Below are positions 18,734 to 58,832 of a DNA stretch of 64,000 nucleotides, in pieces. Made by a program: the position numbers and the translations under genes. Positions within the stretch are counted from its first letter, which is position 1; every line of letters starts with the position of its first letter. Under the pieces are notes generated by a model that worked only from the letters and a program-made list of their open reading frames with translations, did not search any database and was not told the origin of the DNA. Location of the stretch: contig NZ_CP049143.1 of assembly GCF_011044495.1 (NCBI RefSeq), forward strand, positions 1,426,001 to 1,490,000, read 5' to 3'. The DNA is from Roseimicrobium sp. ORNL1. Lineage in GTDB: Bacteria; Verrucomicrobiota; Verrucomicrobiia; Verrucomicrobiales; Verrucomicrobiaceae.

Positions 18734-18824
18734 GGCGTCGCGGAGACATCGTGGAATCGAATATAAGAGGACTGTCTCGTGAGTTGGCTGAGTCGAGATG
18801 GCTTGAAGCGAACCTTCAGGGGCG

Positions 18825-19063
18825 CCACCTTGCGCGCAGCGCCGTGGAGTGCGTGTGCGAAGCACCGCTTTGGGATGGGAGCCTTAGTGCGGAGCTTGGA
18901 CGAGGGTGAATCGCGTAGTGTGCGACACCAGTTTTCTTTAGGCATCACCGGCGCACTGCTTCAGTTTCATGTAGCGTGGTAATTCCGGAGTCTTGAGGGA
19001 TGGTGCATCACACGCCAAGGCGGTGCTTCGCACACACCCTCCAAGGCGTTGCGCACAAGGTGG
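18825..19063. repeat. Long inverted repeat (49-bp arms) in intergenic region
   Basis: Arm 18825-18873 and arm 19015-19063 are reverse complements at 43 of 49 positions, including an unbroken 16-base core GTGTGCGAAGCACCGC. They are separated by 141 bases without an open frame. The arrangement is that of a miniature inverted-repeat element or a very long transcript hairpin. The gap between the flanking genes (18734-19239) contains nothing else I recognise. Confidence 0.8.
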
Positions 19064-19239
19064 TTCACCTAATCCATATGCATCATCGCACGGGCTGTTG
19101 TTGTCACGAGACGCTCATTGAAGAGCAACGTTCTGACAAAGCGCCCGGCAAATCTCTCTGAATTCAATCCGTCCAAAACGCGTCTCAGCGGGGAAGGGTG
19201 TGTCACTGCATCGCACGAATAAGAAAGGAGGGCAACGCC

Positions 19240-22162: not shown

Positions 22163-23350
22163 TTACTTGATGGGTCCCCAGTGGCTGGTCAGCGGCCAGT
22201 AGCAGAACCAACCTGGGCCAACGAGATTTTGCCGGGGCACCGCTCCCCAGAAGCGGCTGTCGCTGCTGTGGTTGCTGTTGTCACCCAAGGCCATGAACTC
22301 GTCATCGGGGAAGGTGCGGAGTGTTTTCTCACCCGCGCCGATGGACGAGTATCCGTAATAGCCCGGCTCCTTCTGATCGATCACCCTGCGGATGCCGGGT
22401 TCGGTGGCCGGCTTGCCATTGATGATCAATTCTGGAGGATCGATGTAGAGAGTGTCCCCGGGCACGCCTGCCAGACGCTTGATGTAATGCTGTGAGCCCC
22501 AGTTCGGATTGAAGCGAGATTCCTGTTCGATTCCGGCGATGTTCTTTGTAGTGAAGACGAAGACTTCACCGCGTTCCGGCCGCCGGAAATGGTAGGCGAA
22601 TTTGTTCACGATAACGTGGTCACCGTTGCGCACGATGCCGCGGGCGAGGAGTTGCCCCTTTTGCACCCGCGTGCCTGAGGGGACCTGAAGCACCTGCTCC
22701 ACCGTGCGGTCGGGATTGTCCATGCCGACCTGGCGGGTGTTCACACCGAGATGACGGGCGATCTGCAGCTCACCGAGAAGCTGGGTCATCGGAGCATTGA
22801 TCTTGATGGTGTGTCCATCCTTGAAGTGCAGCCTGCAGAAGCGCCGGAAAATGAAGAAGGGGTGTTCGGTGATGGTGACCGGCGATGCCAGTTCGCCGTC
22901 GTGATCAGACACCACATTGAGGTACGTGGTGCCGGTAAACCAGCCGCCCGCCTTCCCGAGGAATCCAGGATTGGGGTCTTCCTCCCGGTACTCTGCCGTG
23001 ATGCCATTCAGCGTGGGCTGCATGGATCCAGTGGGAATCTGGAAGGGCTGGGCGATGTACGTGCGGATGCCCAGAGCGATGACGATGGAAACGAAGAAGA
23101 CCTCGATATTCTCCGCCAGCTCGGACGTGCGCATCTCCGGCAGCGCCTTTTCACAGGTCCGGTTGATGTCCTTGGTGAGGTCCTCGATCTTCTTGGCGTC
23201 CTTCTCCTTGATCGCGTCCTTCAGCGCGTCCCGCTGCTTCTCAATCTCATCCAGCTTCGCCGGCGGAAGCAGGTCCCGCTTGTAGTGGAGGAAACGGGTG
23301 ACTCCCTTGTAGAGGAGCTTGGCCTGCTTGAGGTAGCGGGGCTGGAACAT
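22163..23350 (-). CDS. lepB: Signal peptidase I
   Basis: Predicted product of 395 residues from ATG 23350; a longer frame to 23437 exists but would run through the repeat arm that borders the neighbouring cassette. After a coiled N-terminal region comes one transmembrane helix and the catalytic Ser109 in IPTGSMQPTL, the catalytic Lys291 in HYIKRLAGVPGD, and the box E motif GDNSNHSSDSRFWG. An insertion of about 100 residues separates the Ser and Lys boxes, making it longer than E. coli LepB. It cleaves signal peptides of exported proteins at the membrane. It is downstream of lepA on the same strand, the classical lepA-lepB order, but interrupted by the four-helix-bundle gene. Confidence 0.93.
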   Translation of the reverse strand: MFQPRYLKQAKLLYKGVTRFLHYKRDLLPPAKLDEIEKQRDALKDAIKEKDAKKIEDLTKDINRTCEKALPEMRTSELAENIEVFFVSIVIALGIRTYIAQPFQIPTGSMQPTLNGITAEYREEDPNPGFLGKAGGWFTGTTYLNVVSDHDGELASPVTITEHPFFIFRRFCRLHFKDGHTIKINAPMTQLLGELQIARHLGVNTRQVGMDNPDRTVEQVLQVPSGTRVQKGQLLARGIVRNGDHVIVNKFAYHFRRPERGEVFVFTTKNIAGIEQESRFNPNWGSQHYIKRLAGVPGDTLYIDPPELIINGKPATEPGIRRVIDQKEPGYYGYSSIGAGEKTLRTFPDDEFMALGDNSNHSSDSRFWGAVPRQNLVGPGWFCYWPLTSHWGPIK

Positions 23351-23361
23351 GAGGAGGAGGA

Positions 23362-23869
23362 GGAAGACGCGGAGAAACGGAGAGCGGGAGACGCGGAGGA
23401 GGGAATCAACGGATGGACCACTTTTCGGGCTGGTCAATCATGGTCACTAGCATGGCGAGGATTTCTTCGTAGAGGGCATCGAGCCGCGTCCGATCGGTTT
23501 CTGTGATGTAAGAGCAGCGATTGGCAAACTCCAGATGGGTTTGCGTTTCTGCCGCTTCACCCTCGGAATCGTTGAGCTTGTTCACCCAAGCTCCCGGGTA
23601 GCGTCGCTTGCGCCAGGCTTCGGAAATGTTCGCCGGCACAGAGCGTGATGACCGCCGAATCTGGTCAGTCAGGGAAAACCTCTCCTCTGAGGGCCATTTC
23701 TTGGAAAGCTCGAATACCGCCATGGCTGCATCCATGGACTTCTGCCAAACAATCAAATCCCGGAACGATCGAATGTTTGGCATACACGTATGAGGCTCGA
23801 CTCTACACTACAGATCTCGTTCCACGATGCATCTCCGTGTCTCCCCCTCTCCCTTTCTCCGCGTCTTCC
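23362..23869. mobile_element. Inverted-repeat cassette carrying a four-helix-bundle gene
   Basis: Arm 23362-23399 (plus strand GGAAGACGCGGAGAAA...) and arm 23832-23869 are reverse complements at 34 of 38 positions. They bracket one gene (23406-23783) completely. The cassette fills the lepA-lepB gap: its right arm ends four bases before the lepA stop codon and its left arm lies 11 bases from the lepB start. No transposase is inside, so if mobile it would depend on an enzyme in trans. No target duplication was identified. Confidence 0.7.
23406..23783 (-). CDS. Four helix bundle protein (23S rRNA intervening-sequence protein family)
   Basis: Predicted product of 125 residues from ATG 23783. The motifs SFRDLIVWQKSMDAAMAVFEL, FSLTDQIRRSSRSVPANISEA and AETQTHLEFANRC are diagnostic of the four-helix-bundle family TIGR02436, whose members are encoded in 23S rRNA intervening sequences of Leptospira and as scattered copies in many genomes, and which is related to the Avd accessory protein of diversity-generating retroelements. 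The biochemical role is unknown, probably nucleic-acid binding. Here the gene lies inside a 34/38 inverted repeat. No reverse transcriptase or rRNA gene is nearby. Confidence 0.9.
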   Translation of the reverse strand: MPNIRSFRDLIVWQKSMDAAMAVFELSKKWPSEERFSLTDQIRRSSRSVPANISEAWRKRRYPGAWVNKLNDSEGEAAETQTHLEFANRCSYITETDRTRLDALYEEILAMLVTMIDQPEKWSIR

Positions 23870-23873
23870 GCCG

Positions 23874-25673
23874 CTAGCCTCCCGTCTTCAGCACCTCGAT
23901 GAACGCTTCCTGCGGGATGTTCACGCGGCCGATGGACTTCATGCGCTTCTTGCCTTCCTTCTGCTTCTCCAGGAGTTTGCGTTTACGGGAGATGTCACCG
24001 CCGTAGCACTTGGCGGTCACGTCCTTGCGGAGGGCGCTGATGCTTTCGCGGGCGATGACCTTGCCGCCGATGGCGGCTTGGATGGCGACGACGAAGAGCT
24101 GTTGGGGGATGACCTCTTTTAGCTTCGCGGCGAGGGCGCGGCCTCGGGACTCCGCCTTGCTGCGGTGCACGATGCACGCGAAGGCATCCACCGGCTCGCT
24201 GGCGATGAGCATGTCCATCTTCACGAGGTCGCTGGGCTGGTAGCCGGCGTGCTCGTAGTCCATGCTGCCGTAGCCGCGGGTGATGCTCTTCAGCTTGTCG
24301 TTGAAGTCCACGAGGATTTCGTTCAGCGGAATGAGGCTGTGCAGCAGCACGCGGTTGTCATCCAGCGTCTCGGTGTGATCCACACTGCCGCGCTTATCCA
24401 TGACGAGCTGCATCATGTCGCCGATGTATTCATTCGGCACCATGAGGAAGATTTTCACCATGGGCTCGCGGATTTCCGCGATCATCTGCGTGGGCGGGAG
24501 GAAGCAGGGATTGTCCACCAGGACCTCGGTGCCATCCGTCTTGGTGACTTCGTAGATAACGCTCGGGTACGTCGAGATGACGTCCATGTTGAACTCACGG
24601 CGCAGACGCTCCTGCACGATTTCCATGTGCAGCAGGCCAAGGAAACCGCAGCGGAAGCCGAAGCCGAGTGCGGCGCTGCTCTCCGCCATGAAGGTGAAGG
24701 CGGAGTCATTGATCTGCAGCTTGCCCACGGCCATCTTCAGCGCTTCGAAGTCCTCGGAGCTCACGGGATAGATGCCGCTGAACACGAGCGGATGAATTTC
24801 CTTGAAGCCGGGCAGCGGGGTCGGCGCAGGGTGGCGCATCTCGGTGACGGTGTCACCGATCTTCACATCCGCGGTGGTCTTCACGTTGGCGATGAAGTAG
24901 CCCACATCACCGGGGCCGAGCTTGTCCACGGCCATCATCTTGGGCTTGAAGACGCCCACTTCCTTCACTTCGTTGTCCAGGCCGGAGGCCATCATGCGGA
25001 TCTTCTGCCCGCGCTGAATGGTGCCGCTCATGACACGGACGTAGGAGACGACGCCGCGATACGGGTCGAAGACGGAGTCAAACACCGAGGCGCGCAGGTA
25101 GCCATCATGCGGATCCGTGGGTGCCGGGATCAGGCGGATGATGGCCTCCAGGATGTCGGTGATGCCGAGACCCATCTTGGCACTGGCGGGCACGGCTTCG
25201 TCCGAGGGAAGCTGCAGAATGTCCTCAAGTTGCTTCTTGCAGCGCTCAATGTCGGCGCTGGGGAGGTCGATCTTGTTGATGACCGGGATGACGTGCAGCT
25301 TCTGCTGCAGCGCGAGATTCAGGTTGGCGACGGTCTGGGCTTCCACGCCCTGGGAAGCATCCACCAGGAGCAGGGCGCCTTCACAGGCGGCCAGGGAACG
25401 GCTCACTTCGTAGCTGAAGTCCACGTGACCGGGGGTGTCCAGCAGGTTGAGCTTGTAGGTCTTCCCGTCCTTCGCCTTGTAGTGCATCGTGACCGGGTGG
25501 GCCTTGATGGTGATGCCACGCTCACGCTCCAGGTCCATGGCATCGAGAAGCTGATCCTGCTTCTGGCGCTCCGTGATGGTCTTGGTGGATTCCAAAAGAC
25601 GATCGGAGAGCGTGGTCTTCCCGTGGTCGATGTGGGCGATGATGGAGAAGTTGCGTGTGAGGGAGATGGGCAT
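23874..25673 (-). CDS. lepA: Elongation factor 4 (LepA), ribosome-associated GTPase
   Basis: Predicted product of 599 residues from ATG 25673, the usual length; an upstream extension to 25730 lacks family similarity. G1 is AHIDHGKTT, the switch region has [11 protein letters not shown]3 is DTPGHVDF, G4 NKIDLP and G5 SAKMGLG. The LepA-specific C-terminal domain is present ([33 protein letters not shown]). LepA binds ribosomes, acting in translation and 30S biogenesis. The stop codon TAG at 23874-23876 lies four bases from the inverted-repeat cassette. Confidence 0.97.
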
Positions 25674-29616: not shown

Positions 29617-29795
29617 GGCGTGGTGCGGCAGGGCAATGCGGAGAGCACCGGGTTCACGGGTGCGGGTTTGGGTGCAGGGTGTTCAACGCAGAGACACAGA
29701 GACGCAGAGGAACTTCGGAGACTGAAAGATACAAATACAGCTTCTACAAAACCTGGAGCATTGAGGTGCAACGCATTTTTGGACCAGCGAGTGTC

Positions 29796-31118: not shown

Positions 31119-31204
31119 CAACCACACAACCCTCAGTCTCCGAAGTTCCTCTGCGTCTCTGCGTCTCTGTGTTGAATCCAATGCAGCCTGCCACACCCAA
31201 CATT

Positions 31205-37158: not shown

Positions 37159-37257
37159 TTGATGAGCGGGGGCACAAGGTGCGCCCCCCCTGAAACTCTT
37201 TGCCAAAGAGTTGCTGAGCTCACCGTGGCTCGAACGTGAGCGCAATGATACAGAAGT

Positions 37258-37462
37258 TGTGACGCGAAGCGTCCCTGGACTGCGTGCAGCCCTGCTGCCG
37301 CTTTCCTAAAGTGCAGCCTGCTGCACGCTTCACTGCGACGAAGTCGCCAAGCTTTTTTGGACGCGTCGAGGTACAAGCGGGTGTCACCATCGCCACAGCA
37401 GGCTGTGGACTCTGGAAAGCGGCAGCAGGGCTGCACGCAGTCCAGGGACGCTGCGCGTCACA
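37258..37462. repeat. Long near-perfect inverted repeat (49-bp arms) between convergent genes
   Basis: Arm 37258-37306 and arm 37414-37462 are reverse complements at 48 of 49 positions, and a second block (CAGCCTGCTG) continues the pairing inward. The whole 205 bases could fold into one long hairpin. There is no open frame. It lies in the 450-base gap between the DUF4838 gene and the convergent flavoprotein gene. The rest of the gap has only a small palindrome at 37529-37546 (CGCCTTC/GAAGGCG), whose outer sequence recurs inverted at 37580-37589. Confidence 0.85.
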
Positions 37463-37608
37463 GCATCCGGATCAGTCGCATATGTCAGCTTGCTCTAACG
37501 CCGATTATCAATAAGAACGGCGGGAGAACGCCTTCAAGCGAAGGCGACTCCGCAAACGATCACGAGTCTGCTCGTTAGAGAAGGCGTTCATCTGACATGC
37601 TGAGAACT

Positions 37609-58547: not shown

Positions 58548-58658
58548 AAAACGTTCCTTGGTGAAAGAAGGGATACGCGGGAAATGCAGTTTGGGACGGG
58601 GGAGGGGGAAATGGAACGGTATGGGGTCGGAAGCCCTCGAAGCCTGGCAACGTGTCAA

Positions 58659-58802
58659 GGAGTGGGGACATTCCTGTCCCCATTTTGGATGGCATGCCGA
58701 CACGGGGTGGAATCTTCCCGTCAGCATCTTTTGCGTTGTGGATGGGATTTGAAAGGCAATGCTCTTTTCACCTCTAAATGGGGACAGGAATGTCCCCACT
58801 CC
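58659..58802. repeat. REPIN-like pair of palindromes in inverted orientation
   Basis: A 27-base sequence at 58659-58685 (GGAGTGGGGACATTCCTGTC, then CCCATTT) is perfectly reverse complementary to 58776-58802. Each copy holds the palindrome TGGGGACA-TTCC-TGTCCCCA. Two REP-like units facing each other 90 bases apart match the layout of REPINs. No gene is present in the 285-base gap (58548-58832). Confidence 0.8.
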
Positions 58803-58832
58803 CTGGCACGAAGTCACCTTGTGGGAGGTGTT

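What the first reader, a model, noticed from the sequence alone, without database searches (positions are those of the whole stretch)
23362..23869. Four-helix-bundle gene packaged in an inverted-repeat cassette between lepA and lepB
Two 38-base arms with 34 pairing positions flank exactly one gene, and the cassette fits precisely between the lepA stop (four bases away) and the lepB start. Four-helix-bundle proteins of this family move as intervening sequences in 23S rRNA in other bacteria and are relatives of a retroelement accessory factor. Here it appears as a free-standing non-autonomous mobile unit without a transposase or reverse transcriptase, a possible undescribed element type.
Basis: partly seen in the sequence, partly recalled or inferred. 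Interest (0 to 1): 0.68.

Follow-up and report, generated by a model that had tools for sequence, protein, structure and literature searches.

The report
Repeat-armed single-gene cassette in operons
A small gene squeezed between two ordinary bacterial genes is framed by mirror-image stretches of a short repeated DNA word, and the same design, with different words, frames this gene family in many bacterial groups, which points to a little-recognised kind of tiny genetic element.

Summary
In detail: window 23359-23398 and 23833-23872 are inverted arms (36 of 40 paired) around one PF05635 gene between lepA and lepB. It is also part of something larger. The arms are tandem octamers, and most PF05635 (23S_rRNA_IVP) genes examined carry such arms: 6 of 6 above-cut-off loci here, 23 of 24 top family loci, 70 of 78 top loci across phyla; controls 0 of 25 ParE genes, 26 of 392 positions. 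Units are mostly 7-8 nt, differ between loci, are G-rich read inward, and abut the upstream stop and downstream start. Gene-less copies are scattered and fit the genome's own IVP arms better than foreign ones. PDDEXK_3 genes carry similar arms (22 of 25). A published Coxiella 23S rRNA intervening sequence has the same plan: terminal repeat plus tandem heptamers beside the S23p ORF. I read this as an IVS-type element in protein operons with REPIN-like gene-less arms. Gene and arms as a unit: strong. Past movement: likely. No excision, target duplication or enzyme was seen; many family copies are old, at orthologous sites, with the protein under purifying selection.

The parts
23359..23872 (.). 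whole cassette (arm, gene, arm)
23359..23398 (.). left inverted arm, about five 8-nt units GANNNGGA; lies between the cassette gene and the lepB start
23833..23872 (.). right inverted arm, 36 of 40 complementary to the left; ends one base from the lepA stop
23406..23783 (-). IVP four-helix-bundle gene (PF05635 / TIGR02436), 125 aa
23874..25730 (-). lepA, upstream neighbour in the same direction (ORF as listed; true start probably further in)
22163..23350 (-). lepB (signal peptidase I), downstream neighbour in the same direction, ATG at 23350

Best explanation
The cassette is a single-gene element of the intervening-sequence (IVS) type sitting in a protein operon instead of a 23S rRNA gene. Gene plus its two repeat-array arms is the inherited unit (shown by statistics). 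Such units have reached many operon gaps and phyla, and gene-less hairpins and solo arrays exist beside them (shown as a pattern; movement inferred). The likely working: the IVP protein, which has five chains in both solved relatives, binds the roughly five repeat units of each arm (inferred). Both arms present the same G-rich, C-poor motif inward, so they act as paired ends in DNA and as a stem in the operon transcript, where RNase III could cut the gene out of the mRNA as it does for IVS RNA (inferred). Strand cutting and joining is supplied in trans (inferred; no candidate enzyme found, none searched for systematically). Arms without a gene are then copied or left behind, much as REPINs relate to RAYT transposases (analogy).
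For: Arms flank PF05635 genes at 6 of 6 above-cut-off loci in the own genome; 23 of 24 fully flanked loci among the 29 best fetched from the family; 70 of 78 of the best 80 named loci versus 26 of 392 control positions; 8 of 10 cyanobacterial plasmid loci plus the three fetched earlier; 16 of 19 loci of four genomes, 4 of the 19 being already. 0 of 25 ParE genes. Best period 7, 14 or 8 in 98 of 107 left arms. Arm similarity rises with protein identity where flanks are not homologous. Own-genome arms find other sites in their own genome (5 of 12 and 8 of 12 arms) but hardly in the other (0 of 12 and 1 of 12), in stretches that hold no IVP gene. Operon-gap placement. dN/dS 0.03-0.11 in the 8 of 10 pairs with finite dS. 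Fold matches 2gsc, 2rld and Avd 4dwl; 2gsc and 2rld have five chains each. The Coxiella IVS has a 28-bp terminal stem and GACAGAT heptamers.
Against: No excision, circle, target duplication or recent insertion was observed. The six copies in the own genome are all different, and many family copies sit at orthologous sites, so movement is rare or ancient. The test for a conserved core inside the unit was negative (8 of 149 arms at p<0.05), so recognition of the unit by the protein is not shown. Five units for five chains is a coincidence of numbers, and the median of 5.0 comes from arms selected to have at least 3.5 units. Similar arms around PDDEXK_3 genes mean the IVP protein cannot be the only factor. 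The window's own two arms had no hit in the 464 kb sample. In one search the backward-read control pattern matched 15 times against 37 in G000 and about as often as the pattern in G067. Loci without arms exist: 8 of 78, 2 of 10 and 3 of 19, 1 of 24 and the sub-threshold L008. The genome holds many other inverted repeats: 56 in 464 kb, 10 of them flagged as tandem, of which 2 frame an IVP or PDDEXK_3 gene.
Confidence: 0.55

Rival explanations
1. Resident operon RNA-processing device. The arms exist to form a stem in the mRNA that RNase III cuts, separating upstream and downstream messages; IVP is a domesticated RNA-binding regulator, and the cassette is no longer mobile.
For: 68 of 99 cassettes have both neighbours in the same direction, and arms abut stop and start codons. 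Low dN/dS at orthologous sites. Arms pair as the outer stem in the minimum-energy fold of the 535-nt transcript. RNase III cuts IVS stems (PMC4990558).
Against: Copies in non-homologous sites with related proteins, cyanobacterial plasmid copies and copies of the arms elsewhere in the genome need spread at some time.
Confidence: 0.25
2. Ordinary non-autonomous DNA transposon (MITE with a passenger gene) mobilised by a transposase elsewhere in the genome, the protein having no part in it.
For: Terminal inverted repeats, no transposase ORF inside, gene-less copies.
Against: Arms differ completely between loci of one genome, which a single transposase would hardly recognise; arms follow the protein clade; no target duplication seen.
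Confidence: 0.12
3. Mutational by-product: short tandem repeats grow by slippage in tight operon gaps, and mirror copies arise by template switching; the gene is incidental.
For: Unit number varies; at orthologous sites both arms change together to some extent (within-locus similarity 0.63 versus 0.52 between loci, within greater in 54 of 80 pairs; biased, because arms were picked as the best-matching stretches). The core-plus-spacer test was negative, as slippage would predict.
Against: It does not explain why PF05635 and PDDEXK_3 genes lie inside while ParE genes do not, nor genome-specific copies of the arms.
Confidence: 0.08

Closest known systems
Intervening sequences (IVS) of bacterial 23S rRNA, e.g. 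Coxiella burnetii IVS with S23p ORF (PMC4990558; outline with abstract, and passages)
   Same: One S23p gene in 428 nt, terminal inverted repeats forming a 28-bp stem, tandem GACAGAT heptamers (two or three, plus a degenerate one) just upstream of the ORF with copy number varying between strains.
   Different: The IVS sits in a 23S rRNA helix and is cut out by RNase III; this one lies between protein genes of an operon, has octamer arms on both sides, and cutting is untested. Heptamers on the 3' side of the IVS are not mentioned in the passages I saw.
REPIN-RAYT systems (PMC3116915; outline with abstract, and passages)
   Same: Single-copy gene flanked by its own repeat flavour, gene-less inverted pairs and singlets of that flavour dispersed in the same genome.
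   Different: RAYT is a tyrosine transposase and REPs are palindromes; IVP is a four-helix bundle with no known catalysis, and the arms are tandem arrays.
G-rich heptamer repeats GGGNATC / GGGGAYT of Xanthomonas and Nostoc (PMC4692102; outline, sections 13 and 16, and passages)
   Same: 7-nt units, preference for four, 70-75 inverted pairs in the two Xanthomonas genomes, placed between aligned genes just after a stop or before a start, function unknown.
   Different: The main text has no hit for S23, four helix or intervening and reports few inverted pairs in Nostoc. My test for the link in Gammaproteobacteria gave 0 of 369 and is uninformative.
Avd of diversity-generating retroelements
   Same: Fold: 4dwl_D, TM 0.77/0.89, Foldseek E 0.028.
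   Different: Avd model score 21 against a cut-off of 80, and no reverse transcriptase ORF in the cassette.

Membership tests
PF05635 / TIGR02436 (IVP, S23 family) | HMM score above the curated cut-off | tested here: met
   114.2 vs 33.8 bits and 108.3 vs 24 bits
23S rRNA intervening sequence | terminal inverted repeat enclosing a PF05635-type ORF in roughly 0.4-0.5 kb | tested here: met
   514 nt
23S rRNA intervening sequence | inserted in a 23S rRNA helix | tested here: not met
   lies between two protein genes; no rRNA match in 23000-24200
23S rRNA intervening sequence | excised from the transcript by RNase III | not testable with these tools
   stem predicted only
DNA transposon / MITE | terminal inverted repeats | tested here: met
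DNA transposon / MITE | target-site duplication at a clean empty site | tested here: inconclusive
   gaps without the gene exist (8 of 11) but are too diverged for base-level ends; in G064 one arm remains at another site
DNA transposon / MITE | near-identical copies in one genome | tested here: not met
   six different IVP genes with different arms in the own genome; the G025 pair, 85% alike, has homologous flanks
REPIN-RAYT | tyrosine (HUH) transposase gene between the repeats | tested here: not met
   only PF05635 and a sub-cut-off bAvd match
REPIN-RAYT | same-flavour gene-less repeats dispersed in the host genome | tested here: met
   for the window's own arms only by the looser pattern
Diversity-generating retroelement Avd | Avd equivalog score | tested here: not met
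   21 vs cut-off 80
Diversity-generating retroelement Avd | adjacent reverse transcriptase and template/variable repeats | not tested
   no such ORF inside the cassette; the genome was not searched for reverse transcriptases

The most novel reading that the evidence does not exclude
A bacteria-wide, so far unnamed class of minimal mobile elements. One small protein (an IVP ring or a PDDEXK_3 nuclease) recognises its own clade-specific 7-9-nt repeat arms, sends gene-less arms into stop/start junctions of operons, and includes the classical 23S rRNA intervening sequences as the members that landed in rRNA genes. The puzzling heptamer repeats of cyanobacteria and Xanthomonas would be its gene-less offspring.
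Probability: 0.4. Interest if true: 0.88.

Novelty: new variant of a known kind. Interest (0 to 1): 0.75.

Why it matters
If right, a large, widely annotated but functionless gene family (four helix bundle / S23 protein) gets a defined context and a testable partner, its own repeat arms. The old riddle of 23S rRNA intervening sequences becomes a special case of a general element. Short tandem repeats of unknown origin in bacterial operon gaps get a candidate source. It also supplies a cheap marker for two gene families: inverted 7-9-nt arrays at the flanking stop and start codons.

Tried and rejected
Core-plus-spacer test of the repeat unit: negative, 8 of 149 arms at p<0.05. Concerted evolution of the two arms: modest and biased by the way arms were chosen (54 of 80); kept as a hint. 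Clean transposition inside one genome: the G025 pair L329/L330 has homologous flanks, so it looks like a segmental duplication. Clean empty site with target duplication: three searches among G064-G067; at the L046 site G064 lacks the gene and one arm and G066 has about 81 nt, no duplication readable. Link to Xanthomonas GGGAATC repeats: spaced inverted-pair pattern, 0 of 369 genomes, and whether Xanthomonas was in the sample is unknown. Nostoc GGGGAYT arrays were not found in the loci held. Rfam: one match with E up to 1 in 23000-24200, below its gathering score, taken as chance. Phage records: no match at E 1e-5 with the window's protein. Papers: ten searches listed none that I recognised as describing arms around free-standing IVP or PDDEXK_3 genes; I opened five papers, and the library is open-access only, so this is weak evidence of absence.

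Limits of the counts: 'best' loci were kept by the tools (29 new loci of a longer capped list; 80 of 583), so weak relatives are under-sampled. The query (A2) was built from five sequences of arm-bearing loci. The pool of 135 loci holds one duplicate (L020 = L095) and many orthologues, so loci are not independent. One search used a fixed match length for most loci, so distances to the gene are approximate. Of the 19 loci, four repeat loci (L349, L350, L352, L353); without them it is 12 of 15. In one search one partly flanked PDDEXK_3 locus (L280) was slightly out of register, without it, gave 22 of 24. dS is near saturation in several pairs and infinite in two. My notes say seven PF05635 loci in the own genome and 13 informative lepA-lepB gaps; the recount is six above the cut-off (one split in two frames) plus one below, and 11 gaps.

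Full report
Observation. The two arms are there: 23359-23398 and 23833-23872, 36 of 40 positions paired, 434 nt apart. The pairing score across the gene is 33 against a shuffle mean of 10.7 and a maximum of 22 in 1000 dinucleotide shuffles; shuffling only the two short gaps, which keeps their G-rich or C-rich make-up, gives 32 against a maximum of 19. The single gene inside is PF05635 / TIGR02436. One base separates the right arm from the lepA stop codon, and eight bases separate the left arm from the lepB ATG. Each arm is a run of 8-nt units of the form GANNNGGA.

Is it general? In the own genome PF05635 gives six loci above the cut-off (one split in two frames) plus one weak match. All six have an inverted repeat around the gene (scores 24 to 34); the weak one does not (13). 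The six have different arm sequences, for example GTTGATAG, ATTTATG, CGGTGAG, AAATGAG. Of 68 genomes of the same family 66 have a match. Of the 29 best loci fetched there, 24 have full flanks; 23 of these score 15 or more and 21 score 18 or more, against 0 of 25 ParE-toxin loci from the same family. A scan of named genomes kept the best 80 of 583 loci, in Bacteroidota, Planctomycetota, Acidobacteriota, Proteobacteria, Firmicutes, KSB1, candidate phyla and others. Of the 78 with enough flank, 70 score 15 or more and 58 score 18 or more, against 26 and 3 of 392 control positions in the same loci. Ten cyanobacterial plasmid loci gave 8, three fetched earlier all had arms, and 19 loci from four genomes gave 16, four of the 19 being repeats of loci.

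Anatomy. Over 135 pooled loci (one duplicate, many orthologues), 107 had an arm score of at least 18. The best self-match period of their left arms was 7 (48), 14 (22), 8 (28), 10 (5), 9 (2), 4 (1) and 12 (1); self-match at period 7 was 0.546 against 0.31 in shuffled arms, and median arm length is 36 nt. Among 149 arms selected for clear periodicity and at least 3.5 units the median is 5.0 units. Read inward, arms are G-rich and C-poor (G 0.334, C 0.125; G exceeds C in 200 of 214 arms). Of 99 cassettes with both neighbours callable by a simple ORF picker, 68 have both neighbours in the gene's direction (81 upstream, 78 downstream). The left arm begins at the upstream stop codon (median 0, quartiles -9 and +6, n=81) and the right arm ends near the downstream start (median 3.5, quartiles -10 and 13, n=78). 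For comparison, in 464 kb of the own genome 215 of 338 neighbouring ORF pairs are on one strand, and only 7% of same-strand intergenic bases lie in gaps of 60 nt or less, so the enrichment is moderate in direction and strong in tightness.

The lepA-lepB gap in relatives. Of 30 lepB loci fetched, 11 have lepA next door (gap lengths run between alignment ends). G000, G001 and G062 carry the gene and same-flavour arms, those of G001 pairing only with gaps. G064, G065 and G067 have 122-125 nt without the gene; G005, G004, G006 and G057 have 40-58 nt without it. G012 has 160 nt that hold an inverted pair of another flavour and no gene. So the cassette is absent from this site in 8 of the 11 genomes seen to keep the gene pair, yet present in two genera. 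Other sites are shared between genera, with dN/dS of 0.03 to 0.11 in the eight of ten pairs where dS was finite, several near saturation. It is old and kept.

Gene-less copies. At L060, in what looks like a liv transporter operon (gene names recalled), further arm pairs without the IVP gene lie in neighbouring gaps. The arms of L049 find about 32 other places in G064, G065 and G067. I fetched 18 of them: 17 are single arrays, and one (L199) has an inverted partner about 330 nt away with no convincing IVP match (best E 0.011 in the part of the list that was printed). In 16 of 18 the upstream gene's stop codon lies at or inside the first units. The window's own flavour, by a loose pattern, recurs at several other places in G000 and G001, one of them a gene-less hairpin; the backward-read control pattern also matched (15 against 37 in G000, 38 against 40 in G067), so that count is soft. 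In a two-by-two test on about 5% of each genome, G000 arms hit G000 in 5 of 12 cases (10 sites) and G067 in 0 of 12. G067 arms hit G067 in 8 of 12 (22 sites) and G000 in 1 of 12. 118 arms from other taxa hit G000 in 0 and G067 in 5 cases. Both arms of a locus can find the same site, and the window's own two arms found none. None of the 40 stretches holds an IVP gene detectable by tblastn. Where copies exist, then, they fit the genome's own IVP genes.

Arms and protein. In pairs of loci without homologous flanks, arm similarity rises with protein identity, from 4.4 below 20% identity (139 pairs) to 14.1 above 70% (7 pairs), while the reverse-complement control stays near 4; Mantel r is 0.196 against a maximum of 0.094 in 2000 permutations. 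The window's protein is 64% identical to one on a Leptolyngbya plasmid, whose arms are also GGAGA octamers. A second family shows the same plan: 22 of 25 PDDEXK_3 loci have arms, often with units of 8 or 9 nt and less clear periodicity (12 of 25 pass the tandem cut, against 22 of 24 IVP loci). I met it in an unguided scan of 464 kb, which listed 56 inverted repeats, 10 flagged as tandem; two of these 10 frame a PF05635 or PDDEXK_3 gene, and I did not find either family in the others (not each of them was searched).

What it is. Fold and sequence place the protein with 2gsc and 2rld, both of five chains, and more distantly with Avd 4dwl. [quoted passage not shown] That is closely similar anatomy. 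The most economical reading is that 23S rRNA IVS and these operon cassettes are one kind of element. How it spreads is inferred: paired ends, protein binding to the repeats, catalysis in trans, and dispersal of gene-less arms like REPINs beside RAYTs (PMC3116915, abstract and passages). No movement was observed directly. The heptamer repeats of Xanthomonas and Nostoc (PMC4692102, sections 13 and 16 and passages) look like the gene-less form, but my test of that link was uninformative.

Verdict. Mobility is likely in the past but unproven, and the mechanism is open. Novelty: a new variant of a known kind (IVS) with features that may justify a class of its own.

Noticed in passing
L251:5523-6132 (own genome, about 905.5 kb) and L269-L298: PDDEXK_3 (GxxExxY-type, name recalled) nuclease genes are framed by inverted arms in 22 of 25 loci tested, often of 8-9-nt units.
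   Followed up: partly
window 29670-29725 / 31133-31188: 56-nt inverted repeat around two ORFs that look like an IS3-type transposase pair (recalled, not searched); the arm core AACGCAGAGACACAGAGACGCAGAGGAACTTCGGAGACTGA, with small changes, is also the arm of the own genome's PDDEXK_3 gene L276 and of an inverted pair in L057 (1681-2011).
   Followed up: partly
L060:4218-5498 and L057:2922-3489: In what looks like the liv transporter operon, GTTGATGG arms sit in several gaps, with and without the IVP gene.
   Followed up: partly
L076 (G012), lepA-lepB gap of 160 nt: Gene-less inverted repeat of a different flavour at the very site of the window's cassette.
   Followed up: no
L229:1468-1538 (G062): A gene-less hairpin of the window's flavour about 1 kb from the lepA-lepB cassette, seemingly on the far side of lepB.
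   Followed up: no
window 37246-37474, 18818-19070, 58651-58810: Three further long inverted repeats of 160-253 nt without tandem units, probably other miniature elements.
   Followed up: no
G001:C1:1152102-1152218: Long unbroken GGAGACAC / GGAGATTC array that seems to follow a stop codon.
   Followed up: no
PMC10910872, figure legend (one passage seen): A large CRISPR-association screen names the 23S rRNA IVP in a figure legend; the tandem arms might have been taken for arrays. This is a guess.
   Followed up: no
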